Shown here: positions 7,014 to 34,818 of the stretch, piece after piece
Numbering within the stretch: position 1 is the stretch's first letter
Layout of the letters: each line of letters starts with the position of its first letter
NCBI GenBank assembly: GCA_005888595.1
Contig: VBAL01000011.1
Location: 11,363-47,494, forward strand
Direction of reading: 5' to 3'
Length of the DNA stretch: 36,132 bases
DNA from: Candidatus Segetimicrobium genomatis
GTDB taxonomy: Bacteria > Sysuimicrobiota > Sysuimicrobiia > Sysuimicrobiales > Kaftiobacteriaceae
Translations under genes and position numbers: made by a program
The notes under the pieces: generated by a model
What the model was told of the DNA's origin: nothing
What the model saw: only the letters and a program-made list of their open reading frames with translations
Databases searched by the model: none

Positions 7014-7141
7014 ACATAAACGACACAACCTACGCAAGCTACAGAATTACTTGCAGAGCTTCCGGCGCCGCCCTTCTTCTTCTCGGATCAGGCCCGTTCT
7101 GCCTGTGATTGTGTAGGTCGTGTAGGTTCTGTAGGTTCGTG
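7014..7141. repeat. Inverted array of 9-nt units (ispH 3' end / der leader)
   Basis: Left arm 7014-7049 is four nonamers (for example ACACAACCT at 7023-7031 and ACGCAAGCT at 7032-7040). Right arm 7106-7141 is four nonamers of the inverse sense (AGGTCGTGT 7115-7123, AGGTTCTGT 7124-7132, AGGTTCGTG 7133-7141). The shared unit is AGGTTNTGT. The 56-nt centre holds the ispH stop, and the right arm is translated as a proline/threonine-rich C-terminal tail of IspH. Confidence 0.7.
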
Positions 7142-7981
7142 TCCTTGCCCAATTTCATCAAGACGGAGCAATACTTCACTGACTATCCAGTCCGGCGTGC
7201 TGGCGCCCGACATCACTCCGACCCGTGTCACGTCCACAAACCAGTCCGCTTTGAGCTCATCCGCCACCTCGATATGGAATGTCGGCAAGCGGTGCGCCTG
7301 ACCGATCTCCCAGAGGCGGGTGGTATTGGCGCTGTGATGGCCACCGATCACCACCAGGGCATCCACCTCTTCCACCATCCGCTCGGCCTCTTCCTGGCGC
7401 ACCGTGATCGCCGGGCACAGGGTGTTGACCACCCGCAGCTCTTTGGTGCGCAGGCTGAGGTCGCCCACGATCTGGCGGAAGTTCTCCTGCGACTGGGTCG
7501 TCTGCGACATGACCGCAACCTTGCCGCGCAGTTTGATCCGCGCCGCCTCCTCGCGGTCGTGTACGATGGTGACTTTGTCGCCAAGGACCTCCTTCAACGT
7601 CACCATTTCGGGGTGCCCGTGGTCGCCAACCACGACGAGGCTGTAGCCCTCTTCCACTAATTTGAACGCCAGGGAGTGGGCCCGGATGACTACGGGGCAG
7701 GTCGCATCGACCACGCGCATCCCCTGCGCTTTCGCGGCATCCAGCACGGCGTGCTCGACGCCGTACGCCGAGACGACGAACGCATCGCCGCGCAGATCCT
7801 CTAGCGCGCCGGCCACACGGACGCCGGCGTCCTGCAACCGGCGTACCACCTGCGGATTGTGGATCAGCGGGCCCCACGTGTATACTGCGCCGGATGCAGC
7901 CTCCGCGGTGCCGCCCGCCATCTCCACCGCGCGCTTCACCCCACCGCAGAAACCCATGTGCTTGGCCACGACGATTTCCAT
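7088..7981 (-). CDS. ispH: 4-hydroxy-3-methylbut-2-enyl diphosphate reductase IspH
   Basis: 297 residues; the [4Fe-4S] enzyme that makes IPP and DMAPP in the last step of the MEP isoprenoid pathway. The three cluster cysteines are present: GFCGGV (C12), DATCPVV (about 95) and NTLCPAI (about 190). The substrate-binding histidines in GPLIHNPQVV and GDHGHPEM and the block GGHHSANTTRLWEI are also there. Starting at the ATG at 7981 puts the first cysteine at position 12 as in E. coli; an upstream ATG at 7993 is also open. The last ~17 residues (EPTEPTRPTQ...) are not part of the family and are encoded by the 9-nt repeat array at the gene's 3' end. Confidence 0.96.
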   Translation of the reverse strand: MEIVVAKHMGFCGGVKRAVEMAGGTAEAASGAVYTWGPLIHNPQVVRRLQDAGVRVAGALEDLRGDAFVVSAYGVEHAVLDAAKAQGMRVVDATCPVVIRAHSLAFKLVEEGYSLVVVGDHGHPEMVTLKEVLGDKVTIVHDREEAARIKLRGKVAVMSQTTQSQENFRQIVGDLSLRTKELRVVNTLCPAITVRQEEAERMVEEVDALVVIGGHHSANTTRLWEIGQAHRLPTFHIEVADELKADWFVDVTRVGVMSGASTPDWIVSEVLLRLDEIGQGHEPTEPTRPTQSQAERA

Positions 7982-8016
7982 CGCCCTTAGCATACTATGG
8001 AAGAGTAACCAAGAAC

Positions 8017-8051
8017 AGTCGGCAGTCTGCAGTCAGCAGTCGGCGGTCAAC
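8017..8051. repeat. Tandem 7-nt array (AGTCNGC) in the ispH/dagK divergent spacer
   Basis: Five contiguous heptamers: AGTCGGC, AGTCTGC, AGTCAGC, AGTCGGC and GGTCAAC. Only a stub of an inverse arm is seen (GTTGACT at 8081-8087 can pair with GTCAAC at 8046-8051). The same unit family recurs at 26847-26933. Confidence 0.65.
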
Positions 8052-8133
8052 ACCCAGTAACATGAAGGCGCGAGTCAGAAGTTGACTGGGTGGGACAGGA
8101 TTGGCCAATTTCGCCGCCGTATAGCCTGATGGC

Positions 8134-9048
8134 ATGTCGCCGCCCCGTACGCCGCTTGGACGCACGCTCGCCATCATTAACCCGTTTTCTGCGAAGGGTC
8201 GCGCGCGGCGTGCCTGGCCGGAGATCAGCGCCACCCTCCGTGACGCCGGACTGCCTTTCGACGAGGTAACGACACACTCGCCAGAGGAGGGCATGGAACT
8301 CGCCGCACGGGCCGGTGGCGACGGCTACGCCGTCGTGATCTCCGCCGGCGGGGACGGCACCACTCACTGGGCTGTGAATGGCTTGATGCGCAGCCGGACG
8401 TCCCCGGTCCCTGCCCTGGCGATTATCCCCGAGGGAACCGCCAACGACTTCCCGCGTTGTCTCCGCATCCCGCTGAATCCACGCGCCGCCGCCCGGACCG
8501 TGCTGGACGGCACGCGGCGCCGTGTCGACATCGGCCAGGTGAACGACCACTACTTTGCCACCATCTCGGGAGTCGGCTTCGATGCCGAGGTGGCGCAGCT
8601 GGTGAACCGGTGGCCGCGGTGGATCAAAGGAACAACGGTGTACGTGGCCGGGATTCTCCAGACGCTGGTGACCTACCGTCCAGTTGACGCGCGAATCACC
8701 ATCGATGGGCAGGAGCAGCAACTGAAGTTGTTTCTACTCGCGGCCGCCAACACCAACTGGTACGGAGGCGGGATGTACATGGCCCCGCATGCCAACATCG
8801 AGGACGGCCTGCTGGCCGTCGTCTACGCGACCGACCTCACCAAGCTGGAGACTCTGGCTGTCCTGCCCAAAGTGTTCTCGGGACGCCACCTGACACACCC
8901 CAAGGTGGCGCACACCACGGCGCGTGACGTGCGCGTGGACAGCGTCGCCCCGCTGGCGATCCACGCCGACGGGGAGATCGTCGGAAAAGTGCCGGCGGTA
9001 TTCCGGATTGTTCCTCGGGCGATCGAGGTCGTTGTCCCGAGGGCGTGA
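8134..9048 (+). CDS. Diacylglycerol-kinase-family lipid kinase (YegS/DgkB/BmrU type)
   Basis: 304 residues with the catalytic fold of lipid kinases. It begins LAIINPFSAKGRARRAWPEI, has the nucleotide-binding GGDGTTHWAVNGL (about 72-84), then IPEGTANDFPRCLRIP, and a C-terminal beta domain with GGGMYMAPHANIEDGLLAV and LAIHADGE. Members phosphorylate diacylglycerol, sphingosine-like bases or undecaprenol at the inner membrane face. With plsC and plsY nearby, recycling of diacylglycerol to phosphatidic acid is plausible but inferred. It is the only plus-strand gene in the first 15 kb and faces plsC convergently. Its stop codon TGA (9046-9048) lies inside the first heptamer of the repeat array. 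The ribosome site before the ATG is poor. Confidence 0.9.
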   Translation: MSPPRTPLGRTLAIINPFSAKGRARRAWPEISATLRDAGLPFDEVTTHSPEEGMELAARAGGDGYAVVISAGGDGTTHWAVNGLMRSRTSPVPALAIIPEGTANDFPRCLRIPLNPRAAARTVLDGTRRRVDIGQVNDHYFATISGVGFDAEVAQLVNRWPRWIKGTTVYVAGILQTLVTYRPVDARITIDGQEQQLKLFLLAAANTNWYGGGMYMAPHANIEDGLLAVVYATDLTKLETLAVLPKVFSGRHLTHPKVAHTTARDVRVDSVAPLAIHADGEIVGKVPAVFRIVPRAIEVVVPRA

Positions 9049-9131
9049 TTGGTGATTCGTGAATCGTGATTCGCCAGGGACGATCGCGCCAGGAGGAAGG
9101 ACCGAATCACAAATCACGAATCACGCATCAC
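9045..9131. repeat. Inverted 7-nt array (GTGATTC) between convergent dagK-like gene and plsC
   Basis: Left arm 9045-9072 is four heptamers (GTGATTG, GTGATTC, GTGAATC, GTGATTC). Right arm 9104-9131 is four inverse heptamers (GAATCAC, AAATCAC, GAATCAC, GCATCAC). The centre is 31 nt. The outermost left unit contains the stop of the dagK-like gene (9046-9048) and the outermost right unit contains the plsC stop (9128-9130), both as gTGAtt-type positions. Confidence 0.9.
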
Positions 9132-9823
9132 TGCCTGATGCGCCGTTGATCCGCAGGGAGCAGTTTTTCGATCGCCTCGATGATGCGTGTGCCCCACCCC
9201 TCCAGCGTCTCGTGATCGAGGCGGCCCTCGATCTTGGGCACGGCGATAAGCGGGCCCATCCGGACGGTCACTCGCTGCATCTTCGGCCGACGGGCTCCCT
9301 TGGGCAAGATGCGTTGGCTGTTGATCACCGCGACCGGCATGACCGCCGCGCCGGTGCGCAGGGCGATCATTGCCGCGCCGGGCTCAGGCGCCCGCAGCCT
9401 CCCGTCGAGGCTGCGTGTACCTTCGGGAAACATCACCAGCACCCCGCCTGATTCCAATACCTCCAGGGACCGGCGGATGGCCTTACGGTCCGGCTCGCCA
9501 CGGCGCACCGGGAACACGCCTATAGAACGCAACAGTGCACCCAGCACAGGCGCCCGCAGGAGCTCGTGCTTGGCCATATAGGCGGCTTTGTGTTTGAGCG
9601 ACATGCCGACGATCGGCGGATCAATCGCGCTGGCATGATTCGCCGCAACAATGAACGGCCCCCTGGCCGGCTCGTGCCCGCGGCCCTCAATTCGAAGACG
9701 AAAGAGCACTTTGCAGATCGCCCAGAGGGCGGTTTTCACACACAGGTACCAGACGTCGGCAACTCGTCCGGCAAGCCAGCGGCCTAGGCCGGCGCTGTGC
9801 GGCACCGCAAAGTCTTTACTCAC
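9128..9823 (-). CDS. plsC: 1-acyl-sn-glycerol-3-phosphate acyltransferase PlsC
   Basis: 231 residues. The acyltransferase boxes are present: AANHASAIDPPIVG (NHx4D, catalytic His and Asp) and VMFPEGTRSLDG (FPEGTR, glycerol-phosphate binding), followed by AAMIALRTGAAVMPVAV. It adds the second acyl chain to make phosphatidic acid. The GTG at 9823 is chosen because GAGGAGG lies just upstream and the start overlaps the end of cmk by 8 nt, showing a cmk-plsC operon as in many Gram-positive bacteria. The open frame continues upstream inside cmk but this is out-of-frame shadow. Its stop TGA lies in the outermost heptamer of the repeat array shared with the convergent lipid-kinase gene. Confidence 0.94.
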   Translation of the reverse strand: MSKDFAVPHSAGLGRWLAGRVADVWYLCVKTALWAICKVLFRLRIEGRGHEPARGPFIVAANHASAIDPPIVGMSLKHKAAYMAKHELLRAPVLGALLRSIGVFPVRRGEPDRKAIRRSLEVLESGGVLVMFPEGTRSLDGRLRAPEPGAAMIALRTGAAVMPVAVINSQRILPKGARRPKMQRVTVRMGPLIAVPKIEGRLDHETLEGWGTRIIEAIEKLLPADQRRIRQ

Positions 9824-10505
9824 GCATCCTCCTCTGGACGAGCTGTACGATGCGAGCCACGACCTCGTCCGCTGGGACCCCCGTTGAGTCGATGACAACC
9901 GCATCCGGAGCGGCGCGCAGCGGCGAGTGGTTGCGCGTGCGATCCCGGCGGTCGCGCTCCTCCTCTGCCTTCCGCACCGACTCCAGATCCACGCCGGCGC
10001 CTCTGGCCTTCAACTCTTCGAACCGCCGGCGTGCACGCTCGTCCAGCGACGCATCCAAGAATACTTTGATCTCCGCGTCGGGAAACACCACCGTTCCGAT
10101 GTCGCGCCCCTCCATCACGACCCCCCCGTCGACCCCCATGCGGCGCTGGATCGTCACCATCGCCTCGCGCACCCCAGGGTAGACGCTGACGATCGACGCG
10201 CCGTCGCTCACCTGGGGGGTCCGGATCGCCTCGGTCACATCCACCCCATCGACCAACACCCGCTGGCCAAGTGGATCTGTCACGAAGTCGATGCGCACCG
10301 ATCGGGCGAGTGCGGTCACGGCCCGTTCGTCGCTCAGGCTGACACCGCGTTGCAGCACCGCCCATGCCACCGATCGGTACATCGCACCGGTGTCCACGTA
10401 ACGGAACCGCAATCGCTGCGCGACTCCGCGTGCGACCGTACTCTTCCCGGCGCCGACCGGCCCGTCGATTGCGACGATCGGCTTGCCGCTCGCGCGCTGC
10501 GTCAT
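9816..10505 (-). CDS. cmk: (d)CMP kinase
   Basis: 229 residues; phosphorylates CMP and dCMP with ATP. The P-loop GPVGAGKST (15-23), YVDTGAMYR, VVMEGRDIGTVVFPDA and the lid DRRDRTRNHSPL are all typical, and the length is normal. The ATG at 10505 fits the family start. No ribosome site is visible: 7 nt upstream the inverted heptamer array (10512-10606) begins, so the translation signal has probably been displaced or the message is handled in another way. It overlaps plsC by 8 nt downstream. Confidence 0.95.
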   Translation of the reverse strand: MTQRASGKPIVAIDGPVGAGKSTVARGVAQRLRFRYVDTGAMYRSVAWAVLQRGVSLSDERAVTALARSVRIDFVTDPLGQRVLVDGVDVTEAIRTPQVSDGASIVSVYPGVREAMVTIQRRMGVDGGVVMEGRDIGTVVFPDAEIKVFLDASLDERARRRFEELKARGAGVDLESVRKAEEERDRRDRTRNHSPLRAAPDAVVIDSTGVPADEVVARIVQLVQRRMRE

Positions 10506-10511
10506 GAAAGC

Positions 10512-10606
10512 GTGATTAGTGATTCGTGATTAGTGATTCGCCAAGACTCTTGGGGACCTACTGTTCCAGGACCGTGACGAATCACGAATCACCAATCACG
10601 AATCAC
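10512..10606. repeat. Inverted 7-nt array (GTGATTC/GTGATTA) between the PspC gene and cmk
   Basis: Left arm 10512-10539: GTGATTA, GTGATTC, GTGATTA, GTGATTC. Right arm 10579-10606: GAATCAC, GAATCAC, CAATCAC, GAATCAC. The 39-nt centre contains a small stem CCAAGACTCTTGG. The unit is the same as at 9045-9131 and 22483-22580. A T-run follows the right arm on the plus strand, but both flanking genes run on the minus strand. Confidence 0.9.
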
Positions 10607-10638
10607 GGTTTTTCTGCGGGGCCGCAGGGCCAGCACGA

Positions 10639-10932
10639 TCAGCCCCCGCCACCCAGCACGAGGATCGAACCCAGCACCCGGGCCCGGCGTTGCGGTTCCC
10701 CTTCATCGGGAACCGGAGGCAGCCCGGGCTCGGTCACGACCTCGGTGAGCGGTTCGTCGGGGAGAAGGATGACGAGGAGCAGGTAGAGCACCAGCCCGAA
10801 CCCGTTCCACAGGGCCAGCAACACGAACGCCACCCGCGGCGCGATGACATCGACGTTGAAATAGTCACTCAGCCCCCCGCAGACGCCGGCGATCCAGCGC
10901 TCGGTGCGCGACCTGTATAACCGCTTTGGCAT
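10639..10932 (-). CDS. PspC-domain membrane protein (C-terminus probably frameshifted)
   Basis: 97 residues with a complete PspC domain: KRLYRSRTERWIAGVCGGLS, DYFNVDVIAPRVAFVLLALW and a membrane helix GLVLYLLLVILLPDEPL. PspC proteins are envelope-stress-related membrane proteins. The protein ends abruptly at LGSILVLGGGG. Adding one G to the GGGGG run just before the stop would continue LIVLALRPRRKTVIRDW, a hydrophobic stretch with a basic end, and stop inside the next repeat array. I therefore suspect a homopolymer frameshift. It lies 20 nt downstream of scpB on the same strand and may be co-transcribed. Confidence 0.85.
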   Translation of the reverse strand: MPKRLYRSRTERWIAGVCGGLSDYFNVDVIAPRVAFVLLALWNGFGLVLYLLLVILLPDEPLTEVVTEPGLPPVPDEGEPQRRARVLGSILVLGGGG

Positions 10933-10952
10933 GGAGCGCTCCCATGAGATGC

Positions 10953-12277: not shown

Positions 12278-12292
12278 CTCCGCGGCCTCAGC

Positions 12293-12922: not shown

Positions 12923-12942
12923 CGTCGTGCTTGCTTCGAGGG

Positions 12943-14259: not shown

Positions 14260-14268
14260 CGAAGCGTG

Positions 14269-17467: not shown

Positions 17468-18286
17468 TCCAGCGCTCGCTGTTCCCTGTTCGCCGCCCGC
17501 TGTTCGCTGCTCGACCCGGCGCGCCGTCGTTATGAACGCCGTGTGTGCGACCATGCGGTGCGCCGGGCGTACGCTGGCCCCTTCAATGTTCCAGGGCCGG
17601 ACCAGCGTCTCAAACGTTTCTACCATGGCAAACGCGCCCGACTGCCGCAGTGACTCCACCATCCGTACCGCCTGCGGGACCGTCGGGACGTACGATGCCA
17701 GGACGCCGCCCTGCCGCAGCGCCGTCACGGCGTGGTGGACAACCCGCCAGGGCTCTGGAACATCGAGGATAATGCGATCGAGCCCCCCATCGGGAATACT
17801 CTCGTAGATATCGTGCGCGCGCGTCACCAGCTGGTCGCTCGATCCCAGGTAGCGACCGATATTCTGCGCGGCCAGCCGACTAAAGTCTTCGCGGACCTCA
17901 TAGGAGAACACCCTGCCCTCCGGCCCCACCGCACGCAGCAACGTCATCGTCAGCGCGCCCGACCCGGTCCCGGCCTCCAGCACTGTCGCGCCCGGATAGA
18001 TGTCCGCGGCGAGAAGGATCGCGCTCAGGTCTTTTGGGTAGATGATTTGGGCCCCGCGAGGCATCGCCAGCACAAACTCGGCCAGGGTGGCACGGACCAT
18101 CAGAAACGTCTCCCCGCGGGTTGTGCCTACGGGCCGCCCCTCCAGCGTCCCGATGAGGTCATCGTGTGGCAGCTTTCCTCCGCGCAGATCCGAAACGGTA
18201 CCGGCGCGCAGGACAATCAAGTAGCGGCGATCCTTCCGATCAATCAGGAGAACAGGTTCGCCATCTTTCAGAGAACCGGATCTCAT
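17420..18286 (-). CDS. trmI: tRNA (adenine-58-N1)-methyltransferase TrmI
   Basis: 288 residues. The N-terminal beta domain (DGEPVLLIDRKDRRYLIVLR) and the Rossmann methyltransferase core (YPKDLSAILLAADIYPG, then VLEAGTGSGALTMTLLRAVG, the S-adenosylmethionine motif, and LDRIILDVPEPWRVV) are as in TrmI. It methylates A58 in the T-loop of tRNA as a tetramer. Conservation ends near MVAHTAFITTARR. The last ~33 residues (EQRTAGGEQG...) are translated from the 7-nt array at 17471-17512 and from antisense of the transporter gene, so its original stop seems to have been lost or displaced. Confidence 0.93.
   Translation of the reverse strand: MRSGSLKDGEPVLLIDRKDRRYLIVLRAGTVSDLRGGKLPHDDLIGTLEGRPVGTTRGETFLMVRATLAEFVLAMPRGAQIIYPKDLSAILLAADIYPGATVLEAGTGSGALTMTLLRAVGPEGRVFSYEVREDFSRLAAQNIGRYLGSSDQLVTRAHDIYESIPDGGLDRIILDVPEPWRVVHHAVTALRQGGVLASYVPTVPQAVRMVESLRQSGAFAMVETFETLVRPWNIEGASVRPAHRMVAHTAFITTARRVEQRTAGGEQGTASAGLKGPDHRDQQDADEP
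17471..17512. repeat. Single-armed 7-nt array (GCTGTTC) at the convergent transporter/trmI end
   Basis: Six contiguous heptamers: AGCGCTC, GCTGTTC, CCTGTTC, GCCGCCC, GCTGTTC, GCTGCTC. It begins 4 nt after the transporter stop. No inverse partner arm was found. The trmI frame reads through it. Confidence 0.6.
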
Positions 18287-18294
18287 GGCCAGCC

Positions 18295-18361
18295 TAAAGA
18301 ATCCATTGGATCTACTCGAGCAATTGATTCAAGAGATTCAATAGATTCAAGGGATTGCACT
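18295..18361. repeat. Inverted 9-nt array (GATTCAAGA) between mcmA2 and trmI
   Basis: Right arm 18326-18361 is four nonamers: GATTCAAGA, GATTCAATA, GATTCAAGG, GATTGCACT. Left arm 18295-18312 is two inverse nonamers: TAAAGAATC, CATTGGATC. The mcmA2 stop TAA begins at the next base (18362-18364). Confidence 0.75.
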
Positions 18362-18793: not shown

Positions 18794-18894
18794 GGGACTG
18801 GGGATTAGGGACTAGGGACTGGTTACTGCACGCCTTCAAGGCGCCAGTGCCGCAAAAACGGGGCACCAGTCCCCAGTCCCTAGTCCCGTAGTGG
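18794..18894. repeat. Inverted 7-nt array (GGGACTR) between the two mutase subunit genes
   Basis: Left arm 18794-18828: GGGACTG, GGGATTA, GGGACTA, GGGACTG, GTTACTG. Right arm from 18867: CAGTCCC, CAGTCCC, TAGTCCC, then a degenerate unit. The 38-nt centre holds a small stem CGCCTT/AAGGCG. The large-subunit stop lies 5 nt outside the right arm. The unit is the same as at 20597-20693. Confidence 0.9.
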
Positions 18895-20596: not shown

Positions 20597-20693
20597 GGGA
20601 CTAGGGAATGGGGACTTGGGACTGGTGACAGCAAACTTCCAATCGGACCTTAGTGCTGAGGTTCATGCTCCCCAGTCCCTAGTCCCCAATCCC
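20597..20693. repeat. Inverted 7-nt array (GGGACTN) between etfA and mcmA1
   Basis: Left arm 20597-20631: GGGACTA, GGGAATG, GGGACTT, GGGACTG, GTGACAG. Right arm 20673-20693: CAGTCCC, TAGTCCC, CAATCCC. The 41-nt centre is unrelated to that of the sister array at 18794-18894. The etfA stop TAG (20679-20681) lies inside the right arm, and the last etfA codons are repeat-derived. Confidence 0.9.
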
Positions 20694-22482: not shown

Positions 22483-22580
22483 GTGATGAGTGATTGGAGA
22501 TTCGCGATTCGCTAAGGGCAAAACCCCCGGTCTGCCATCCGCGTATCTGAACGAATCACTAATCACGAATCACCAATCAC
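22483..22580. repeat. Inverted 7-nt array (GTGATTC family) between acyl-CoA dehydrogenase and etfB
   Basis: Left arm 22483-22510: GTGATGA, GTGATTG, GAGATTC, GCGATTC. Right arm 22553-22580: GAATCAC, TAATCAC, GAATCAC, CAATCAC. The centre is 42 nt. The dehydrogenase stop TGA (22563-22565) lies in the second right-arm unit, and its last six residues (NVIGDS) are encoded by the array. Confidence 0.9.
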
Positions 22581-23805: not shown

Positions 23806-23850
23806 GTGGATTGAGTAGATCGAGGAGATTGTGTAGATTGAGGAGTATGA
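23806..23850. repeat. Single-armed 9-nt array (GTAGATTGA) before the thiolase-like gene
   Basis: Contiguous nonamers: GTGGATTGA, GTAGATCGA, GGAGATTGT, GTAGATTGA, then GGAGTATGA, which contains the start ATG (23847-23849). The ribosome site GAGGAG is itself part of the array. One possible inverse unit, ACAATCTTC at 23730-23738, is seen; no full second arm. Confidence 0.65.
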
Positions 23851-24995
23851 GTGACCGCGTAGCCGTGGTTGGCGTCGGCGCAGTCCCGCCGCGCCCCCTC
23901 TCCGTCGACCGTTCCTATCGCGAATTGGGATTCGAATCCGCCACCCGTGCGTACGGCGACGCCGGCGTGACTCATCAGGACATCGAAAGTTTTATCAGCG
24001 TGTGTGAAGATTTCCACGAGGGCACGAGCATCACCGACGAGTACACACCAGACCAGCTGGGGGCCGTGCTGCAACCGGTTCACACGATCGCCGGCGACGG
24101 CCTGCAAGGCGTTGCCGCCGCGGTCATGCTCATCCGCACCGGGATCGCCGATCTGGTCGCGGTCGAAGCGCATTGCAAGACTTCAAACATCCTCACCCAC
24201 GAACAGGTCCTGGCGATGGCGCTGGATCCCACGTACGAACGTGCTCTGCGCGTCACCCCGCACTTTGTGGCCGGAATGGAGATGCGGCGATATCTGCACG
24301 AGACCGGCTCGTCAGAAGATGCCGTGGCGATGGTCGTGGTCAAGAACCGGCGTCACGCGCTTGGCAACCCGGTGGCCGCGTACGGCGGGATCCTCTCCCC
24401 CGACGACGTCCTGGCCTCGGCCGCGGTCTGTGAACCCCTGCGGGAGCTTGAGATCAGCCCGAACTCTGACGGTGCGGTCGTTCTCGTCCTGGCGTCAGAA
24501 GAGGCAGCGCGCCGTACGCCTAAACCGGTGTGGATCCGCGGGGTGGGATGGGCGTCGGGCACTCCCTGGCTCGCCGGACGCTCATGGGGTCAGGCGTCCT
24601 ACGCCGGCGTGGCGGCAGAGATGGCGTATCGGATGGCGGGCATCACTCAGCCAGACCGGGAGATTCGGTTCGCCGAGATCGATGACACGTACGCCTATAA
24701 GGAACTGCAGCACCTCGAAGCAGCACAACTGGCGCCACGCGCAGATGTGACCCGGATGGTCATGGAAGGAGAAACGAGGCGGGGCGGCCGGCTGCCGGTG
24801 AATCCTTCCGGCGGAAGCCTCGGCATGGGCTATTGCTTCGATGCGACCGCGCTCTACCGGACAGCAGAAGCAGTGCGTCAAATTCGGGGTGAAGCCGGCC
24901 GCGCGCAGGTCGCACAAGCGACGACGGGTCTGGTCGTCTCGTGGAGAGGAATTCCAACACAGAGCGGGGGCGCAATGGTGCTGAGTGCGGACTAA
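23847..24995 (+). CDS. Thiolase-fold protein lacking catalytic Cys and His (SCP2/Ltp2-like), first of a pair
   Basis: 382 residues with the overall thiolase fold: VAVVGVGAVP, FESATRAYGDAGVTHQDIE, LRELEISPNSDGAVVLVLAS, AEIDDTYAYKELQHLE and a C-terminal NPSGGSLGMGYCFDATALYR. The nucleophilic cysteine position is A82 (IAGDG where thiolases have CGSG), and the C-terminal histidine of GHPxG is Y329 (MGYCFD). A Claisen thiolase reaction is therefore unlikely. Such proteins are known to act with DUF35 partners, for example the Ltp2 retro-aldolases of steroid side-chain degradation, and two DUF35 genes lie downstream. The ATG at 23847 sits only 1 nt from GAGGAG; a TTG at 23838 is an alternative. Substrate unknown. 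Confidence 0.82.
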   Translation: MSDRVAVVGVGAVPPRPLSVDRSYRELGFESATRAYGDAGVTHQDIESFISVCEDFHEGTSITDEYTPDQLGAVLQPVHTIAGDGLQGVAAAVMLIRTGIADLVAVEAHCKTSNILTHEQVLAMALDPTYERALRVTPHFVAGMEMRRYLHETGSSEDAVAMVVVKNRRHALGNPVAAYGGILSPDDVLASAAVCEPLRELEISPNSDGAVVLVLASEEAARRTPKPVWIRGVGWASGTPWLAGRSWGQASYAGVAAEMAYRMAGITQPDREIRFAEIDDTYAYKELQHLEAAQLAPRADVTRMVMEGETRRGGRLPVNPSGGSLGMGYCFDATALYRTAEAVRQIRGEAGRAQVAQATTGLVVSWRGIPTQSGGAMVLSAD

Positions 24996-24999
24996 CGAA

Positions 25000-25069
25000 A
25001 TTGCGGATTGTGAATTGCGAATTGAAAAGCTGCGGTTCAATTCACAATTGACAATCCACAATTCGCAAT
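25000..25069. repeat. Inverted 7-nt array (ATTGNGA) between the two thiolase-like genes
   Basis: Left arm 25000-25027: ATTGCGG, ATTGTGA, ATTGCGA, ATTGAAA. Right arm 25035-25069: GTTCAAT, TCACAAT, TGACAAT, CCACAAT, TCGCAAT. Here the centre is only 7 nt, so the whole forms one tight hairpin. It starts 5 nt after the stop of the first gene. Confidence 0.9.
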
Positions 25070-26267: not shown

Positions 26268-26848
26268 TGGCGAGAACTCGAGCCAAGCCCGCGACCGCCC
26301 GGGCGCCGGCGCCTCCATACGTCCCGCTGCGAGGCCATCCGCTCAACGAAGAGGAGTTCCGCGGGCAAGTGGGCTCGACTACGTGGGTACCAAGATTGGA
26401 GTATGCGTGGGACGCGGGGGTCGCCATCAGCCGATTTCTGGACGGGCTGCGGGAAGGCAAGATCTACGGGGTGCGCTGCCGGCGATGCGGCCGCACCGTC
26501 ACCCCACCCCGCGCGTTCTGTGAACTCGACTTCAAACCGATGGATGAATGGATCGAGCTGCGAGACACCGGTACGATCAACACCTTCTCCATCTGTTACG
26601 TGACCTGGGATATGAAGCCGCTGCGCGTCCCGCAGATTCCGGCGGTGATTGAGATCGATGGCACCAGTCCGCGGGTCGGATTCCTCCATCTTGTGGGCGG
26701 CGTACGCGGCCGTACGGTCACTGAGATCCGGCGTCAGGTGCGCGTGGGGTTGCCGGTGCGGGCGGTGTGGAAGCCTCCGGCAAAGCGGGAGGGGGCGATT
26801 ACTGATATTCTCCACTTCGAGCCAGTGAGGAAACGTGCGAACAGATAG
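26267..26848 (+). CDS. DUF35 (zinc ribbon / OB-fold) partner protein A
   Basis: 193 residues. A helical N-terminus leads to a zinc ribbon with C71, C74 and C85; the fourth cysteine is D88 (CELD), so the metal site has three cysteines and perhaps an aspartate. An OB-fold follows (INTFSICYVTWDMKPLRV, PAVIEIDGTSPRVGFLHLVG). DUF35 proteins bridge thiolase-fold partners and bind the CoA pantetheine in archaeal HMG-CoA synthase complexes and Ltp2-type aldolases. It is translationally coupled to the second thiolase-like gene. Its stop TAG (26846-26848) runs into the first unit of a heptamer array. Confidence 0.87.
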   Translation: MARTRAKPATARAPAPPYVPLRGHPLNEEEFRGQVGSTTWVPRLEYAWDAGVAISRFLDGLREGKIYGVRCRRCGRTVTPPRAFCELDFKPMDEWIELRDTGTINTFSICYVTWDMKPLRVPQIPAVIEIDGTSPRVGFLHLVGGVRGRTVTEIRRQVRVGLPVRAVWKPPAKREGAITDILHFEPVRKRANR

Positions 26849-26933
26849 TCGGCAGGCTGCAGTCGGCAGTCCAATCATCGTATGGCGCGCGACAGGATGG
26901 ACTGCAGACTGCTGACTGGTGACTGCTGACTGG
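26847..26933. repeat. Inverted 7-nt array (AGTCNGC / GCNGACT) between the DUF35 genes
   Basis: Left arm 26847-26874: AGTCGGC, AGGCTGC, AGTCGGC, AGTCCAA. Right arm 26899-26933: GGACTGC, AGACTGC, TGACTGG, TGACTGC, TGACTGG. The centre is 24 nt. The upstream gene's stop TAG shares two bases with the first unit. The same unit family occurs at 8017-8051. Confidence 0.9.
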
Positions 26934-29110: not shown

Positions 29111-29150
29111 TGTGCAGTTTCCTCCATGGGAACAATGCAATTTAGACTGG

Positions 29151-29234
29151 GTGAATAGTGAATGGTGAATAGTGAATAGCATCTACCGCCATCCTGTCCC
29201 TAAAACTATTCACTATTCACTATTCACTATTTGA
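29151..29234. repeat. Inverted 7-nt array (GTGAATA) between the kinase remnant and the hydroxyacyl-CoA dehydrogenase
   Basis: Left arm 29151-29178: GTGAATA, GTGAATG, GTGAATA, GTGAATA. Right arm 29207-29234: TATTCAC three times, then TATTTGA. The centre is 28 nt. The stop TAG of the kinase remnant (29213-29215) lies within the right arm. Confidence 0.92.
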
Positions 29235-29679: not shown

Positions 29680-29680
29680 C

Positions 29681-30985
29681 TCAGGTGATCACGCCGTGGA
29701 TCAGCGGGCGTGGTGCCGGAGCCCGCGCGGCGATGCGATACGCCGCCTGGATCCGCCGCCCAGCCTCCGCCGCCCGCGCGCGGTCCGGAGCGTGGACGTC
29801 GGCCAGTGGCTCGCCGTCCCGCACGGGATCGCCGACTTTTCGCACCAGCACGACGCCGACCGCGGGATCGATGCGGTCGTCCTTCGTGGCCCGGCCGGCA
29901 CCCAACCCCATCGCCGCCAGCCCTACCGCCTGCGCGTCGACCGCCGCGACAACCCCTGACGACGGCGCCTCCACGGCGATGCGAACAGGCGCGGCGGGCA
30001 GGCGGCGGGAGTCGTCGACGACACGGCGGTCGCCACCTTGCGCGTCGACCAACTGCGCGAATTTTGCCAGGGCGCTGCCGTCGTCCAGTATCTTCATCAG
30101 TAAGTCTTTCCCTTCGCCCGCGGACCGCGCCACGCCGGCGAGAGTCACCATCTGCGCGCCGAGTTCCAGGCACAGTTCCCGCAGATCTAAGGGACCGTCG
30201 CCCCGCAGCGTCTCAATGGCTTCGGCCACCTCCAGCGCGTTGCCCACGGCGCGGCCCAGCGGTTGGTCCATGTCGGTGATCAGCGCGGTGGTGCGCCGAC
30301 CCACCTGGGCGCCGATTCCGACCATCGCCTGAGCCAGCTCCCGCGCTCCGTCCAGGGTCTTCATGAAGGCCCCGCTCCCGGTCTTCACATCCAGCACAAT
30401 GGCGTCGCTGCCACCGGCGATCTTCTTGCTCATCACACTGCTGGCGATCAGGGGGAGGCTGTCCACGGTGGCGGTCACGTCGCGCAGCGCGTAGAGTTTC
30501 TTGTCGGCCGGCACCAGCTCGTTCGTCGCCACCACGATGGCACAGCCGACGCGATTCACCTGGTCGATGAACGCCCGCGTGTCCAACTGGGTCCGGAAGC
30601 CCGGAATCGACTCCAGCTTGTCGATCGTTCCCCCGGTATGCCCCAACCCCCGACCCGACATCTTCGCCACCGGCGCGCCTGCCGCAGCGACGAGTGGGAT
30701 GAGCACCAGGGACGTCTTGTCCCCCACCCCTCCGGTGCTGTGCTTGTCGACCTTGGTGCCGCGGATGGCGCCGAGATCCAGCGTCTCCCCCGACCGGACC
30801 ATGGCCAGAGTGAAGTCCGCCGTCTCCCGGGACGACATCCCCCGGAAGTAGACGGCCATCAGGAACGCGCTCATCTGATAATCAGGGATTTCGCCGGCGA
30901 CGTACCCGGCCAGGATTGCGGAGATCTCGCCGGCGGTCAGTTCCCCGCCGTCGCGCTTTTTCTGGATGAGCTCATAGGCGCGCAT
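29681..30985 (-). CDS. pdp: Pyrimidine-nucleoside phosphorylase (thymidine phosphorylase family)
   Basis: 434 residues; splits thymidine, uridine or deoxyuridine with phosphate. MRAYELIQKKRDGGELTAGE, the phosphate-binding KVDKHSTGGVGDKTSLVLIP, SGRGLGHTGGTIDKLESIPG, SSVMSKKIAGGSDAIVLDVK and GRAVGNALEVAEAIETLRG are all family signatures, and the C-terminal barrel-sandwich domain (DPAVGVVLVRKVGDPVRDGE) is present. The products deoxyribose-1-P or ribose-1-P go to the phosphopentomutase encoded upstream. The length favours the Gram-positive Pdp type with broad pyrimidine specificity. It follows the DUF3307 gene by a few bases and is in line with PNP and deoB. Confidence 0.95.
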   Translation of the reverse strand: MRAYELIQKKRDGGELTAGEISAILAGYVAGEIPDYQMSAFLMAVYFRGMSSRETADFTLAMVRSGETLDLGAIRGTKVDKHSTGGVGDKTSLVLIPLVAAAGAPVAKMSGRGLGHTGGTIDKLESIPGFRTQLDTRAFIDQVNRVGCAIVVATNELVPADKKLYALRDVTATVDSLPLIASSVMSKKIAGGSDAIVLDVKTGSGAFMKTLDGARELAQAMVGIGAQVGRRTTALITDMDQPLGRAVGNALEVAEAIETLRGDGPLDLRELCLELGAQMVTLAGVARSAGEGKDLLMKILDDGSALAKFAQLVDAQGGDRRVVDDSRRLPAAPVRIAVEAPSSGVVAAVDAQAVGLAAMGLGAGRATKDDRIDPAVGVVLVRKVGDPVRDGEPLADVHAPDRARAAEAGRRIQAAYRIAARAPAPRPLIHGVIT

Positions 30986-30986
30986 C

Positions 30987-31715
30987 TCACAGATCTCGCC
31001 CCGTTACCGCGTCCACATCGCCCTCACCAGCATGCCGCCGATCACCCCGATGGTCGAACTCGTCAAGGTCCCGATGAGGTTTGGGTACGGACTCCATCTC
31101 CTTGTATCGCGCCACCGACTTCGCCGCCAGCACAAAACCAACCGCGCCAAATTGATTCACTGCAACCAGGGAGGTGATCAGCAGGCGCTCGATGATCCCG
31201 ATGTACGCTCCCGCTTTGAGCAGGCCGGGGCGGTCGGCATCCGCGAGCGCGGAGAACGATTGCACCACCAGCCTCACGGCGATCGATCCGCCGAGGACAC
31301 ACGCGATGTACACACTGGTGAGCGCAAGGTACCGCGAATCGTCGAACGGCAGGCGCAGCGCGCTGATCAACGCATCTGTGGGAATGTAGCCAAACGCTGC
31401 GGCAAGAACGACGATCGACACGGCGTGGAGGAACTGGTCAGAGAGGAACGTGGCCAGCGGCCGTACGCCGTCCGGCCACCGCCGATCAGCGGCAATCTTG
31501 GCGCTATCGATGATGAGGTGCGCACCGGCCAGAACCAGAATGAGGAACGCATACCGGCGTGACCATAATTCCACGCCGATAAACAGGGACACCGCGAAGA
31601 CGACGCCGGTGTGCACCAGCAGGCCCCAGACGCTCCTCTTCTTCCACGCGACCAGGGACCCCGGTTGGAGTACAAAATCGGCCACCAGACTCGCCAGGAT
31701 GAGCCGTGCCACCAT
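30987..31715 (-). CDS. DUF3307 membrane protein, C-terminus frameshifted
   Basis: A 242-residue open frame with several membrane helices. LILASLVADFVLQPGSLVAW, then VFAVSLFIGVELW, LAGAHLIIDSAKIAADRRWP and FLSDQFLHAVSIVVLAAAF identify DUF3307, whose HxxxD in AHLIID is conserved. After KEMESVP the frame turns charged and unlike the family. Removing one base from the run at 31080-31082 gives NLIGTLTSSTIGVIGGMLVR and a stop TAA at 31004-31006, which is the expected ending. So the natural gene is probably 31004-31715. The ribosome site GAGGGGG lies 7 nt before the ATG. It often neighbours satD genes, as here. Function is not established. Confidence 0.82.
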   Translation of the reverse strand: MVARLILASLVADFVLQPGSLVAWKKRSVWGLLVHTGVVFAVSLFIGVELWSRRYAFLILVLAGAHLIIDSAKIAADRRWPDGVRPLATFLSDQFLHAVSIVVLAAAFGYIPTDALISALRLPFDDSRYLALTSVYIACVLGGSIAVRLVVQSFSALADADRPGLLKAGAYIGIIERLLITSLVAVNQFGAVGFVLAAKSVARYKEMESVPKPHRDLDEFDHRGDRRHAGEGDVDAVTGRDL

Positions 31716-31781
31716 AGAGCGTCCCCCTCGTGAGCCGGGGCTCCACTGGCTACTTCCATGCCTGTCGTCCGCGCTCCGCCA

Positions 31782-31859
31782 GTCACCCCGGAAGGTCTGA
31801 CTGAGGGATAGTCACCCCAAAAGGTATGACAGAAGGTTTGTCAGCCCTACAGGGGTGAC
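31782..31859. repeat. Three 20-bp GTCA...TGAC units at an exact 29-nt period (satD / DUF3307 junction)
   Basis: Units at 31782-31801, 31811-31830 and 31840-31859 share GTCA at one end and TGAC at the other, with GTCACCCC followed by an AAGG or TAGGG core. The third unit is inverted relative to the first two. Unit starts are exactly 29 nt apart. They lie 66-144 nt upstream of the DUF3307 start, and the third overlaps the satD stop (TAG at 31847-31849). A regulator-binding array or an RNA structure is possible. This differs from the 7/9-nt arrays in unit length and spacing. Confidence 0.75.
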
Positions 31860-32578
31860 AGCTTGGGACGGGCTCCCACAGCACCGCGAGACTCCGCCGC
31901 GGGCCCCTTTCCTAATGACTCGCCCAGCGACGCGAAGATCTCGGGCAGATGCGACTCCACTGTCAGCACCCGGCTCCAGAGCGTGTTCCGAAGTGACTTG
32001 CTCACGGACTGTTTCGAGATTCCCAGTCGTGCCGCGACCTTCTCCACCTTCCCCAGTTCCTTGTACAGATTAAACCGCTCCCATTGCGGCTTCGTCCATC
32101 CAGCTTCAACCCCGCCCAACAGCAAATACACGGCGTTGAGCACACCATCGGCAAAGCCATCGCTGGTTCGAACCACGACCTCCAACCGTTCTTTCTTGGC
32201 TGCCCCAATGGCACCGCGTGCGTTGACAAACGCCGGACCATCCATTTCGGTCACGCGTTGACTGAGCTTTGTGGCGATCTGCCCGATCCCGATGCCCACA
32301 CTGATCTCACTGGGATGAAAGACGGCGTGGATACTGCTCACCACGCGGGGCGCCTGTTCCAGATCATGCAGCAACCCCTGGATTTCGTCTCCCAGCGTCA
32401 CCATAAACGGCGCCGCCAGGCTGCGCTTGAACCGGGCATTGAGGGATCGCACCAGCCGGCCGAGCTTGTCCTGGACATCGGCGCGATTTCCAAGCCGTCT
32501 CGATTCCACCAGGTCCGCGGTGACGGTCGCATAGAGGGACGCGCGTCCGTTTTTCCGCTCCGGGCCGACGTCACGCAT
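31847..32578 (-). CDS. satD: SatD-family protein with C-terminal helix-turn-helix
   Basis: 243 residues. SLYATVTADLVESRRLGNRA, then LAAPFMVTLGDEIQGLLHDL and SEISVGIGIGQIATKL form the SatD domain, whose fold recalls nucleotide-cyclase-like folds. Near residues 170-205, WERFNLYKELGKVEKVAARL plus GISKQSVSKSLRNTLW is a helix-turn-helix of the sigma-region-4 kind. SatD was named from a streptococcal acid-tolerance operon; its biochemical role is not settled. The ATG at 32578 overlaps the stop of PNP (TGATG) with AAGGAG 8 nt upstream, so it is coupled to purine salvage. The stop and last residues lie in the third 29-nt-period unit. It may regulate its own neighbourhood (inference). Confidence 0.85.
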   Translation of the reverse strand: MRDVGPERKNGRASLYATVTADLVESRRLGNRADVQDKLGRLVRSLNARFKRSLAAPFMVTLGDEIQGLLHDLEQAPRVVSSIHAVFHPSEISVGIGIGQIATKLSQRVTEMDGPAFVNARGAIGAAKKERLEVVVRTSDGFADGVLNAVYLLLGGVEAGWTKPQWERFNLYKELGKVEKVAARLGISKQSVSKSLRNTLWSRVLTVESHLPEIFASLGESLGKGPAAESRGAVGARPKLSPL

Positions 32579-33399
32579 CACGTCATCTCCTTCACAATCC
32601 GTTTCACCAGTCGAATGAACTTCGGCTCGAGCTCCCGGGCGACCGCGATCACATCCTCGTGCGTGACCGTCTTGACCTGCTCCCCGGTGGCCATGTCGGT
32701 GATCGCGGTGATGCCCAGCACCCGCATGGCCATGTGCCGGGCGGCAATCACCTCGGGCACGGTCGACATCCCCACCGCGTCGGCGCCCCACACCCGCAGC
32801 ATGCGGAGTTCGGCCGGCGTCTCGTAGCTGGGACCGTGCACCCCAGCATACACACCCTTGCGGATGGGAATGCCTTCGGCCAGGGCGGCGCGTTCCGCCA
32901 GCGCGATCAGCTCGGGCTCGTACGCCTGGGACATATCCGGGAACCGCGGGCCCAGATCGGGATCATTGGGACCCATCAGCGGATTGCTACCCGTGAAGTT
33001 GATGTGGTCGGCAATAATCATCAGATCCCCACTGGACCACAGCCGGTTGATCCCGCCGGCCGCATTGCTGACCAGGAGCACCGGTGCTCCCAACGCCCGC
33101 ATGACCCGCACGGGAAAGACCACATCGGCCAGGGAGTAGCCTTCGTAAAAGTGCGCCCGTCCCTGCATCGCCACCACGCCTTTGCCTTCCAGCCGCCCGA
33201 CGATGAGGTTCCCGGCGTGCCCTTCCACCGTGGACCGCGGGAAACCAGGAATCTCGCCATAGGGGATGATGGTGTCGGCGCTGACTTCACTGGCCAGCCC
33301 CCCCAGCCCCGATCCGAGAATGATGGCGACCTGCGGCGTGAGCGATGTGCGTCGTCGCACTACTGACACAGCTCGATCGATTTGCTGCTTCAACTCCAC
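32578..33399 (-). CDS. Purine-nucleoside phosphorylase (PNP-I, trimeric type)
   Basis: 273 residues. VAIILGSGLGGLASEV binds phosphate; GFPRSTVEGHAGNLIVGRLE, QGRAHFYEGY, LLVSNAAGGINRLWSSGDLM, DHINFTGSNPLMGPND and GVHGPSYETPAELRMLRVWG are the family signatures, with GMSTVPEVIAARHM for base and ribose binding. It releases purine bases plus (deoxy)ribose-1-phosphate. The N-D residue set supports the guanosine/inosine-preferring (PupG/PunA) type. The start is GTG at 33399 with a weak ribosome site. It lies between deoB and satD in the salvage run, and the deoB junction carries a 9-nt array. Confidence 0.95.
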   Translation of the reverse strand: MELKQQIDRAVSVVRRRTSLTPQVAIILGSGLGGLASEVSADTIIPYGEIPGFPRSTVEGHAGNLIVGRLEGKGVVAMQGRAHFYEGYSLADVVFPVRVMRALGAPVLLVSNAAGGINRLWSSGDLMIIADHINFTGSNPLMGPNDPDLGPRFPDMSQAYEPELIALAERAALAEGIPIRKGVYAGVHGPSYETPAELRMLRVWGADAVGMSTVPEVIAARHMAMRVLGITAITDMATGEQVKTVTHEDVIAVARELEPKFIRLVKRIVKEMT

Positions 33400-33423
33400 G
33401 ACATCACCCGTCCAGCGAACTGC

Positions 33424-33534
33424 GTCTACAATGTCTACCCGGTCTTCAAAGTCTACCAGGTCTACCCACCCTCTCCGGAATCCCGGCAGGTAGACATGGT
33501 AGACATGGTAGACCTGGAAGACCTGGTAGACGTC
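33424..33534. repeat. Inverted 9-nt array (GTCTACCNG / GTAGACNTG) between deoB and PNP
   Basis: Left arm 33424-33468 is five nonamers: GTCTACAAT, GTCTACCCG, GTCTTCAAA, GTCTACCAG, GTCTACCCA. Right arm 33490-33534 is five inverse nonamers: GTAGACATG twice, GTAGACCTG, GAAGACCTG, GTAGACGTC. The centre is 21 nt. Even the odd GAAGAC unit has a GTCTTC partner in the other arm. The deoB stop (33533-33535) overlaps the last unit. Confidence 0.92.
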
Positions 33535-34680
33535 ATTTCACGATTAAAGGAAGCATACTCGTCCCCGGCCCTTGCCAGGGAACGTCAAGCGCTTCTGCGA
33601 CCGTCGCGCCGACGTCGGCAAACGTGGGGCGCACGCCCAGGTCCACACCGCCCCGCACCGCGGGACCGGCGAACAACGCCGGAACATACTCACGGGAGTG
33701 GTCGGTGCTGCCCGTCGTGGGGTCGTTGCCGTGGTCGGCCGTAATCACCAACAGGTCATCCGGGCGCAGCCGGTCCCTCACCTGCGGAAGCGCTCCGTCG
33801 ATGGCCTCCAGGTCGTGCGCATAGCCCGCCGGATCGTTGCGGTGTCCATACTTGGAATCCAGATCTACCAGGTTCGTAAAGATGATCCCCCGCGCGACCA
33901 CCGCCATCGCCGCCGCCGTTTGCGCCACACCATCCAAGTCATCGTGCGTGTGCACGCCGCGGGTCACCCCGCGACCCGCAAAGAGAACCCCTGCGCGGTG
34001 GCCGCGTCCAGCACGGTGCGGGCAGTCGGCGGCAACGAGAAATCCCGCCGGCGGTCGGTACGCGTGTACGCGCCCGCAGACCCCACGAACGGTCGGGCGA
34101 TGACGCGGCTGACGGCATGCCGTCCGGTCAGCAGCCGCCGCGCCGCAAGGCAGATCTCGTACAACCGCTGGGGTGGAATCACGTCCTCGTGGGCCGCCAC
34201 CTGGAACACGCTGTCGGCGGATGTATAGACGATGGGGTACCCGGTCCGTTGGTGCTCGGGGCCCAGCCGCGCAATGATCTCCGTCCCCGAGGCCACCTCG
34301 TTGCCTAACGTCCTGGTGCCGATTGCACGTTCGAATGCGGCGATCAGATCGGGCGGGAATGCATGCGGATAGGTAGGAAACGGACGATCCACGATCACGC
34401 CCATCAATTCCCAGTGCCCGGTGGTCGAGTCCTTTCCCGCCGACCGCTCCGCCAGCTTCCCAAACGCTCCCTGCGGGGCCGGAAGCGGCCGGACTCCGTC
34501 GATGGCTGCGATCCGGCCCAGGCCGAGCGCTTCAAGGTGCGGTACCCGGAACCCGCCCACGGCGTGGGCCGCGTGAGGCAGCGTACTGCTCCCCACGTCC
34601 CCGTACCGGTCGGCGTCTGGAAGCTCGCCGACCCCAGCGCTGTCCAGCACGATGATCACGATACGACCGAAGTGAAACAC
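33533..34680 (-). pseudogene. deoB: Phosphopentomutase, split by a short deletion/frameshift
   Basis: The first part (from GTG at 34680, 238 codons) encodes [20 protein letters not shown] (metal Asp), [15 protein letters not shown] (phospho-threonine region), and [17 protein letters not shown]. It stops at 33964-33966. A second frame, continuing [58 protein letters not shown], holds all remaining metal ligands. The two join near 33975-33990. About nine residues that normally precede FAGRG (the GVGK region) are missing, and the total length is not a multiple of three, so a deletion of about 26-29 nt is likely. The enzyme would interconvert (deoxy)ribose 1- and 5-phosphates between PNP/Pdp and central metabolism. 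Either a real loss or an assembly error. Confidence 0.9.
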
Positions 34681-34726
34681 GGTGTTGAGTTTGTGTCACA
34701 GCGCAGGAAACCCTGGCCCGGGTAGA

Positions 34727-34818
34727 ATGCGGCACGCAGAACGCAGGTGGCAAATGGCTGCAACTCCATCACCCGCGCGGCTTTCTGCGTTCTGCTGTCT
34801 GCGTTCTGTGTTCTGCTT
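34727..34818. repeat. Inverted 7-nt array (ACGCAGA / TCTGCGT) between xerD and deoB
   Basis: Left arm 34727-34754: ATGCGGC, ACGCAGA, ACGCAGG, TGGCAAA. Right arm 34784-34818: TCTGCGT, TCTGCTG, TCTGCGT, TCTGTGT, TCTGCTT. The centre is 29 nt. The xerD frame reads through the right arm and stops in the centre at 34769-34771. Confidence 0.88.

What the first reader, a model, noticed from the sequence alone, without database searches (positions are those of the whole stretch)
7014..34818. A recurring intergenic structure: inverted arrays of degenerate 7-nt or 9-nt units, with different sequence at each junction but the same architecture
Fourteen junctions (7014-7141, 8017-8051, 9045-9131, 10512-10606, 17471-17512, 18295-18361, 18794-18894, 20597-20693, 22483-22580, 23806-23850, 25000-25069, 26847-26933, 29151-29234, 33424-33534, plus 34727-34818) carry short tandem units. 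Most form two facing arms of about 3-5 units around an unrelated 7-56 nt centre. What is conserved is the unit length, arm length and geometry, not the sequence. The two arms of a locus match each other even where units deviate. Cyanobacterial STRR heptanucleotide repeats are the nearest thing I know, but I know of no described family with paired, locus-specific arms. Possible roles: RNA hairpins at mRNA 3' ends, a mobile or self-propagating repeat, or products of template switching.
Basis: partly seen in the sequence, partly recalled or inferred. Interest (0 to 1): 0.9.

Follow-up and report, generated by a model that had tools for sequence, protein, structure and literature searches.

The report
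Repeat hairpins paired with S23 genes
Hundreds of short hairpins made of facing 7-9-letter repeats sit just behind stop codons in this uncultured bacterium, and the same kind of facing repeats also encloses small genes of a protein family (S23) that has no known function, so the two look like parts of one self-spreading element.

Summary
The arrays are real: 14 strong ones in the window, none in 20 shuffles; 11 of the 15 listed junctions have two facing arms. Elsewhere in this genome about 2 such elements occur per 10 kb sampled, none in shuffles. Units are 7, 8 or 9 nt, recur as families of one polarity each, and start a median 4 nt after stop codons. In a 95%-identical congener orthologous junctions keep the family, carry another, or are empty.

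Key result: PF05635 genes (S23, '23S rRNA intervening sequence protein', solved as a five-chain ring) are enclosed by such arrays, usually with copy-specific units: 41 of 45 testable genes from several phyla (32 of 45 at a stricter cut) against 1 of 208 control genes. At one site one congener has arms plus S23 gene, another arms only. Best reading: gene-less members of IVS-like selfish elements with S23 as reader, as REPINs relate to RAYTs. Paired arrays are in print (Xanthomonas, Geobacter); I saw no report linking them to S23. Binding and mobility are inferred.

The parts
7009..7137 (.). two-arm element, 9-nt units, 79-nt centre, between der and ispH (tandem); its right arm lies inside the ispH frame, whose stop is at 7088
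8016..8048 (+). single array, unit GCAGTCN
9045..9131 (.). two-arm element GTGATTN, arms 29 nt, centre 29 nt; the stop codons of both convergent genes lie in its outermost units
   Evidence: present in G002 with few arm changes
10511..10607 (.). two-arm element GTGATTN, a few nt from the first ATG of the cmk frame (minus strand)
17471..17512 (.). degenerate 7-nt array, weakest of the set
   Evidence: only (TRF)
18295..18361 (.). 9-nt element (AATCTATTG type), one degenerate arm; junction empty in G001 and G002
18794..18887 (.). two-arm element GGGACTN between the B12-binding gene and the methylmalonyl-CoA mutase gene; G001 has an 8-nt element (GGACCAGG type) here
20597..20693 (.). two-arm element GGGACTN; junction without array in G001 and G002
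22483..22580 (.). two-arm element GTGATTN; G001 has GTGACTG here, G002 none
23806..23851 (.). 9-nt array (GATTGAGTA type); G001 has both arms
24999..25069 (.). two-arm element AATTGTG; G001 has an 8-nt unit (GGACCATG) here
26847..26932 (.). two-arm element GCAGTCN; G001 has an array of GTCACCA/GTAACCA units here
29151..29231 (.). two-arm element GTGAATA, kept in G001 (one unit lost from one arm) and G002
33424..33531 (.). two-arm element GTCTACCNN, kept in G001; G002 has GTCTACTT(A/G)-type units in both arms
34724..34816 (.). two-arm element GCAGAAC at the 3' end of the integrase gene

Best explanation
The window's structures are gene-less members of a class of small selfish elements. Each element is a pair of inward-facing arrays of 4-5 units of 7-9 nt, lying just behind a stop codon. 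The full-length form carries, between the same kind of arms, one gene of the S23 / 23S-rRNA-intervening-sequence-protein family (PF05635), and different S23 copies have arms of different units. Shown here: the arrays, their families, polarity and position; turnover between congeners; enclosure of S23 genes by arrays in several phyla; and one site with the gene-bearing form in one congener and a gene-less form in another. Inferred: the S23 ring reads the unit cores of its own family in single-stranded or hairpin RNA/DNA, and this recognition lets both forms be copied or kept at gene 3' ends, as RAYT proteins do for REPINs. In the mRNA the hairpins would then act like REP hairpins (3'-end protection or effects on the upstream cistron). 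The enzyme that cuts and copies the DNA is not identified.
For: PF05635 genes of at least 80 bits with both flanks readable are enclosed by an inverted tandem-array pair (score >= 14) in 21 of 22 (46-genome set) and 16 of 19 (other named genomes), and 4 of 4 on cyanobacterial plasmids (all four hits taken, whatever their score); at score >= 16 the counts are 19, 11 and 2. Controls at >= 14: 1 of 208 genes (also 1 at >= 16), 2 of 400 and 2 of 400 random slots, 1 of 20 Y1 transposases. Five named genomes where I had picked out inverted intergenic arrays by eye (L009, L057, L059, L068, L073) all have PF05635 over the cut-off (1, 1, 1, 4, 6 copies). In the 43 same-order genomes PF05635 occurs in G000, G001, G002, G004, G005, G007, G008, G009; more than one array-pattern hit occurs in G000, G001, G002, G004, G005, G007, G012 (on 21 genomes, on 46), and the G008 copy sits in GGGATAA arrays. 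One site: arms plus S23 gene in G002, arms only in G001, a composite in G000. For 8 of 8 S23 copies checked in G000 and G001, 3-18 short elements of a like unit (up to 2 mismatches) exist in the sampled genome. The linker TTA/TTG typical of G002 is also that of arms around one of its S23 genes. Polarity: 207 inward against 1 outward same-family pair within 150 nt. Median 4.1-4.9 units per arm in the 19 families measured; PDB relatives 2gsc and 2rld have five chains each. S23p of Xanthomonas is a homopentamer, and the Coxiella IVS has tandem heptamers before its S23 frame (PMC4990558, passages).
Against: S23 has no known catalytic activity in what I read, so mobility needs another enzyme that I did not find. 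Centres are unique to each locus and show no clear trace of S23 genes, which simple copying or simple internal deletion would not predict. G012 has 40 pattern hits but no PF05635 match. GTGATTN is abundant in G000 without a cognate S23 gene found there (assembly 88% complete). Four of the 45 tests failed (L291, L305, L314, L321); several passes are marginal (score 14-15); below 80 bits 3 of 8 passed. In one search, genomes whose fetched 4-21 kb showed no clear arrays also have PF05635 (for instance L019, L035, L037, L070, L083, L085, L088). No binding, expression or transposition data exist. Kinship of genomes makes presence/absence counts non-independent.
Confidence: 0.68

Rival explanations
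1. The arrays are host regulatory hairpins of REP type at mRNA 3' ends, and S23 genes are passengers that happen to land inside them.
For: Position behind stop codons, strong hairpins, core positions less changed than free ones at 19 retained loci (31/609 against 83/405; inflated because arms are found by likeness to the unit).
Against: 41 of 45 testable S23 genes are enclosed, in unrelated phyla, with units that differ from copy to copy; a passenger would not pick a private repeat unit.
Confidence: 0.12
2. The arrays are paired binding sites for several DNA-binding regulators, as proposed for Geobacter metallireducens (PMC2700814).
For: Conserved core plus freer positions in each unit; steady unit number; facing pairs of different families exist.
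Against: Different family or no array at the same junction between 95%-identical genomes and lineage-specific amplification are unlike a regulon.
Confidence: 0.08
3. REP-type elements mobilised by the Y1 (RAYT-like) transposases present in these genomes.
For: Y1_Tnp occurs in 15 of 46 genomes, among them G000, G001, G002, G004, G005, G007; architecture and position resemble REPINs (PMC8049555, PMC12306157, passages).
Against: 0 of 20 Y1 loci have a two-arm element within 1.5 kb, and some are flanked by GGGTCWGACCC palindromes instead; 1 of 20 at score >= 14; single arms do not fold.
Confidence: 0.05
4. Templated repeat addition by a telomerase-like reverse transcriptase (DRT10 type; PMC12632851, abstract) at breaks behind stop codons, giving two facing arms round a filler.
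For: Fixed polarity, unique centres, and a unit core with ambiguous end positions.
Against: No RVT_1 match in G000, G001, G002 or G004; G007 and four other genomes of 46 do have one.
Confidence: 0.04
5. Local origin by replication slippage plus template switching.
For: Unit gains and losses do occur, and the arms of a locus are very slightly more alike than expected.
Against: Recurring families and one polarity.
Confidence: 0.03

Closest known systems
Intervening sequences (IVS) of 23S rRNA with an S23 frame (Coxiella, Leptospira); PMC4990558, passages read
   Same: Inverted termini forming a long stem (28 bp in Coxiella) round an S23 gene; tandem heptamers (GACAGAT) in front of the frame; called selfish and acquired by horizontal transfer.
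   Different: Known in rRNA genes; here dispersed behind protein genes in large numbers, mostly without the gene, and with whole arms made of tandem units.
Xanthomonas GGGAATC heptamer repeats (PMC4692102; passages read)
   Same: Most motifs have four units; convergent pairs in 70 and 75 cases; [quoted passage not shown] core GGGANTN.
   Different: One unit family, studied as G-quadruplex; the term S23 does not occur in its main text.
Geobacter metallireducens paired 'global regulator binding sites' (PMC2700814; passages read)
   Same: Pairs on opposite strands, each of 3-5 tandem units of 7-9 nt, variable spacing.
   Different: Read as protein-binding sites; no turnover or S23 link in the passages read.
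Cyanobacterial STRR heptamers and the Nostoc trnL P6b stem (PMC2670836, PMC4476775; passages read)
   Same: Heptamers that form hairpins; in P6b a heptamer-based stem with class switching; three of four cyanobacterial plasmid S23 genes here have inverted heptamer arms.
   Different: P6b is one intron locus; no S23 link in the passages read.
REPIN/RAYT (PMC8049555, passages) and REP/BIME (PMC3733652, abstract; PMC12306157, passages)
   Same: Two inverted arms round a diverse spacer; behind coding regions, in unidirectional or convergent gaps; a separate protein gene spreads them.
   Different: REP arms are themselves palindromes with GTAG/CGTC tags; the protein is a Y1 transposase, not S23.

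Membership tests
IVS / S23 elements | S23 (PF05635) gene between inverted termini | tested here: met
   41 of 45 testable genes enclosed; the window's own elements have centres too short for the gene
IVS / S23 elements | insertion in 23S rRNA and excision by RNase III | tested here: not met
   no Rfam match in the five S23 loci searched and only a tRNA in the window; excision not testable
REPIN/REP | each arm is itself a palindrome (REP) | tested here: not met
   300 of 458 arms folded alone: median z 0.0, 6.7% below -2
REPIN/REP | RAYT gene flanked by the element | tested here: not met
   0 of 20 Y1 loci; 1 of 20 by score
REPIN/REP | two inverted arms round a diverse spacer, behind stop codons | tested here: met
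STRR | dispersed intergenic tandem heptamers | tested here: met
   7-nt families; 8- and 9-nt families go beyond the definition
Intrinsic terminators | hairpin followed by a T run | tested here: not met
   TTTT within 15 nt outward in 24 of 458 arms (5%), though this is more than the 6 of 514 control stops (1%)
Telomerase-like RT product | reverse transcriptase in the genome | tested here: not met
   no RVT_1 match in G000, G001, G002, G004, all incomplete assemblies

The most novel reading that the evidence does not exclude
S23 pentamers are sequence-specific readers of arrays of about five unit cores, one core per subunit, and S23 gene plus arrays form a two-component self-spreading system found across bacteria. 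It would join cyanobacterial STRRs, the Geobacter and Xanthomonas paired arrays and the rRNA intervening sequences into one class, with hundreds of gene-less copies acting at mRNA 3' ends.
Probability: 0.5. Interest if true: 0.92.

Novelty: new variant of a known kind. Interest (0 to 1): 0.85.

Why it matters
The S23 family has had a solved ring structure since 2006 and, in the paper I read, no known function (PMC4990558); short tandem heptamers have been noted in cyanobacteria, Geobacter, Beggiatoa and Xanthomonas without a settled cause. A gene-to-repeat pairing that differs from copy to copy and is seen in several phyla makes both questions testable at once: which S23 binds which unit. If true, many bacterial short intergenic tandem repeats would be the footprint of one mobile system that decorates gene 3' ends and turns over faster than the genes.

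Tried and rejected
Local slippage or template switching: rejected on families and polarity. RAYT mobilisation: Y1 genes lack flanking arrays. Telomerase-like RT: no RVT_1 in four array-rich genomes. Intrinsic terminators: few T runs, though four times the control. Centres as copies of one another or as S23 remnants: no clear signal (22 against 10 shuffled at score 14 and 4 against 5 at 16). A universal outer motif AACNNN: strong in GGGACTN, CGGGAACG and GGACCAGG arms, nearly absent in GTGATTN and others, so not claimed as general. Rfam on the window at gathering scores: only a tRNA.

Biases and dropped rows: G000 contigs came mostly from a GTGATTN hit list, so whole-genome pattern counts are used for family comparisons. 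Core conservation is inflated by how arms are found. Family labels come from 19 typed seeds and misplace a few degenerate arrays. One search lists 28 matches of at least 80 bits: 6 gave no locus, 1 repeats G004, 2 have a flank cut by the contig end, 19 were testable (15, 4 of the 7 truncated loci). The five genomes were picked by eye from 11 loci printed; other loci with an inverse score (L011, L022, L043, L044, L047, L064, L076, L080, L081) were judged coding repeats (L044, L076) or not looked at. Gene calls are my own codon-usage calls, so start codons are uncertain. One search used, for G002, G004 and G007, only listed matches and skipped part of the overlapping ones.
Full report
What is there. 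The window is part of a 2.94-Mb unnamed draft genome, G000. Its nearest named match is an Armatimonadetes groundwater MAG (80% for one protein), followed by others at 73-74%, including the MAG named CSP1-3. Two congeners are held: G001 (about 95% DNA identity in aligned pieces) and G002 (mostly 80-85%). The listed junctions carry tandem 7- or 9-nt units. A strict detector finds 14 arrays in the window and none in 20 shuffles. Eleven of 15 junctions have two facing arms.

Beyond the window. I found 129 two-arm elements in 596 kb of G000 and 111 in 809 kb of G001, with none in one shuffle of each. Unit periods are 7, 8 and 9. In the first sample of 172 elements, 14 families hold 140, and none of the 14 occurs in the reverse polarity (two small families of 3 and 2 members are within one mismatch of each other's complement). 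Within 150 nt, 207 same-family neighbours face inward and 1 outward. Among different-family neighbours 16 face inward and 12 do not; about six of the 16 are between related labels. Each family has conserved core positions and one to four freer ones. Arms hold a median 4.1-4.9 units whatever the period (458 arms of the 229 elements assigned to a family, of 240). The two arms of a locus are hardly more alike than arms of other loci of the family (0.799 against 0.789). Centres have a median of 33-38 nt. Of 148 centres compared with all held sequence, those with strong matches matched their orthologue, array remnants or another repeat.

Position. Of 171 elements 145 lie between tandem genes, 16 between convergent and 10 between divergent ones, among 765, 92 and 94 junctions of these kinds. 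The median distance from the stop codon to the element is 4 nt (177 distances). Where the tandem gap leaves 60-150 nt free, 15 of 18 sit nearer the stop (medians 4 and 70 nt); with 150-400 nt free it is 7 of 10, not significant. Whole elements fold strongly (median z -6.7 for 240), single arms do not (300 folded), and T runs follow in 24 of 458 arms against 6 of 514 control stops.

Turnover. At 46 orthologous junctions between G000 and G001, 20 keep the family, 13 have different families, 12 have an assigned array in one genome only and 1 is unassigned (a few labels are rough). In the window, 20597 is filled in G000 and has no array in G001 and G002; 22483 has GTGATTN, GTGACTG and nothing, respectively. 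Centres align at 8 of 9 same-family loci and at 0 of 9 different-family loci that could be compared; one locus labelled same-family (C236:317) keeps its centre with changed arms. Whole-genome patterns show lineage-specific amplification: GTGATTN 72, 29, 85 and 11 hits in G000, G001, G002 and G004, 0 in the other 17 of 21 genomes; AATCTNCNC 0, 39 and 4 in G000, G001 and G002, 15 in G005, 2 in G007, 0 in the other 16 of 21; GTCTNC 276, 263, 355, 19, 81 and 40 in G000, G001, G002, G004, G007 and G012, single hits in three others of 46. The backward-read control pattern gave hits only (2, in G014). The free linker of the 9-nt family differs between genomes: TTA/TTG is 71% of sampled G002 linkers against 12% in G000; G000 and G001 do not differ.

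The missing gene. Five same-family inward pairs have 430-700-nt centres (9 outward pairs lie 400-1000 nt apart, as neighbouring elements would). Four of these centres encode proteins of PF05635, 23S rRNA intervening sequence protein (E 1e-31 to 3e-37). In the 46-genome set PF05635 occurs in 10: eight of the 43 same-order genomes (G000, G001, G002, G004, G005, G007, G008, G009) plus G043 and G045. Strong copies are enclosed by inverted array pairs, whose units differ from copy to copy (orthologous copies share theirs): 21 of 22 genes of at least 80 bits in that set, 16 of 19 in other named genomes with both flanks readable, and 4 of 4 S23 genes on cyanobacterial plasmids, at score 14 or more. 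At 16 or more the counts are 19, 11 and 2. Controls at 14: 1 of 208 genes, 2 of 400 and 2 of 400 random slots, 1 of 20 Y1 transposases. Below 80 bits 3 of 8 passed. In one of the four plasmid cases (Pseudanabaena) the adjoining arrays run in the same sense and the inverse match comes from arrays further out. The five named genomes in which I had picked out inverted arrays by eye all have PF05635 over the cut-off, but so do others in whose short fetched stretch I saw none. For eight S23 copies of G000 and G001, 3-18 short elements of a like unit exist in the sampled genome.

One site in three congeners. G002 has arms of GGGACTN round an S23 gene. G001 has arms of GGGATTN round a 27-nt centre. 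G000 has one GGGATCN arm and a GTCTTCCC element. The flanks are homologous. Behind another shared gene G001 and G002 carry different S23 genes; the G002 one (L291) is a case where the enclosure test failed.

How it may work (inference). S23 of Xanthomonas is a homopentameric ring (PMC4990558, passages; 2gsc and 2rld have five chains). Four to five units with fixed cores, flexible pitch of 7-9 nt and one polarity suit a ring whose subunits each grip one core of a single strand. The gene-less elements would be mobilised or kept in trans, as REPINs are by RAYTs (PMC8049555, passages). REPs within 15 nt of stop codons are reported to stall ribosomes (PMC12306157, passages), and REP hairpins stabilise 3' ends (PMC13289151, passages). 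No catalytic partner was identified; no reverse transcriptase match was found in G000, G001, G002 or G004.

Prior work. Paired arrays are described for Geobacter metallireducens (PMC2700814, passages) and Xanthomonas (PMC4692102, passages), heptamer stems with class switching for Nostoc trnL (PMC4476775, passages), STRR hairpins (PMC2670836, passages), TAACTGA repeats (PMC4679880, abstract and passages), and tandem heptamers before the S23 frame in the Coxiella IVS (PMC4990558). My searches for a link between S23 and such arrays (held library only; one search failed) showed none in titles or first lines; of the papers listed there I read passages of four (PMC4990558, PMC4692102, PMC2700814, PMC4679880). 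So the arrays are a known kind; the dispersed, family-rich form tied to S23 genes is the new part, as far as these searches go.

Noticed in passing
G001:C162:1844-2593 (L123): A RAYT-like Y1 transposase gene flanked by GGGTCWGACCC palindromes, a separate repeat family.
   Followed up: partly
G001:C50:16914 and G001:C1 near 15000: A palindromic repeat of the type TCATTGCGAG...GCAATCTCC nested inside array centres; a further dispersed element in these genomes.
   Followed up: no
window 31781-31861: A 29-nt tandem repeat, 2.8 copies, unrelated to the arrays.
   Followed up: no
   Followed up: partly
G012: 40 matches to the GTCTNC 9-nt pattern but no PF05635 match: a lost or unassembled S23 gene, or an exception.
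   Followed up: no
G001:C1:14303-15072: An inward CGGGAACG pair enclosing a 241-aa frame that does not look like S23 (family not checked).
   Followed up: no
L333, Pseudanabaena galeata plasmid pPg_01: An S23 gene with very long heptamer arrays sits between cas6 and cas4 genes.
   Followed up: no
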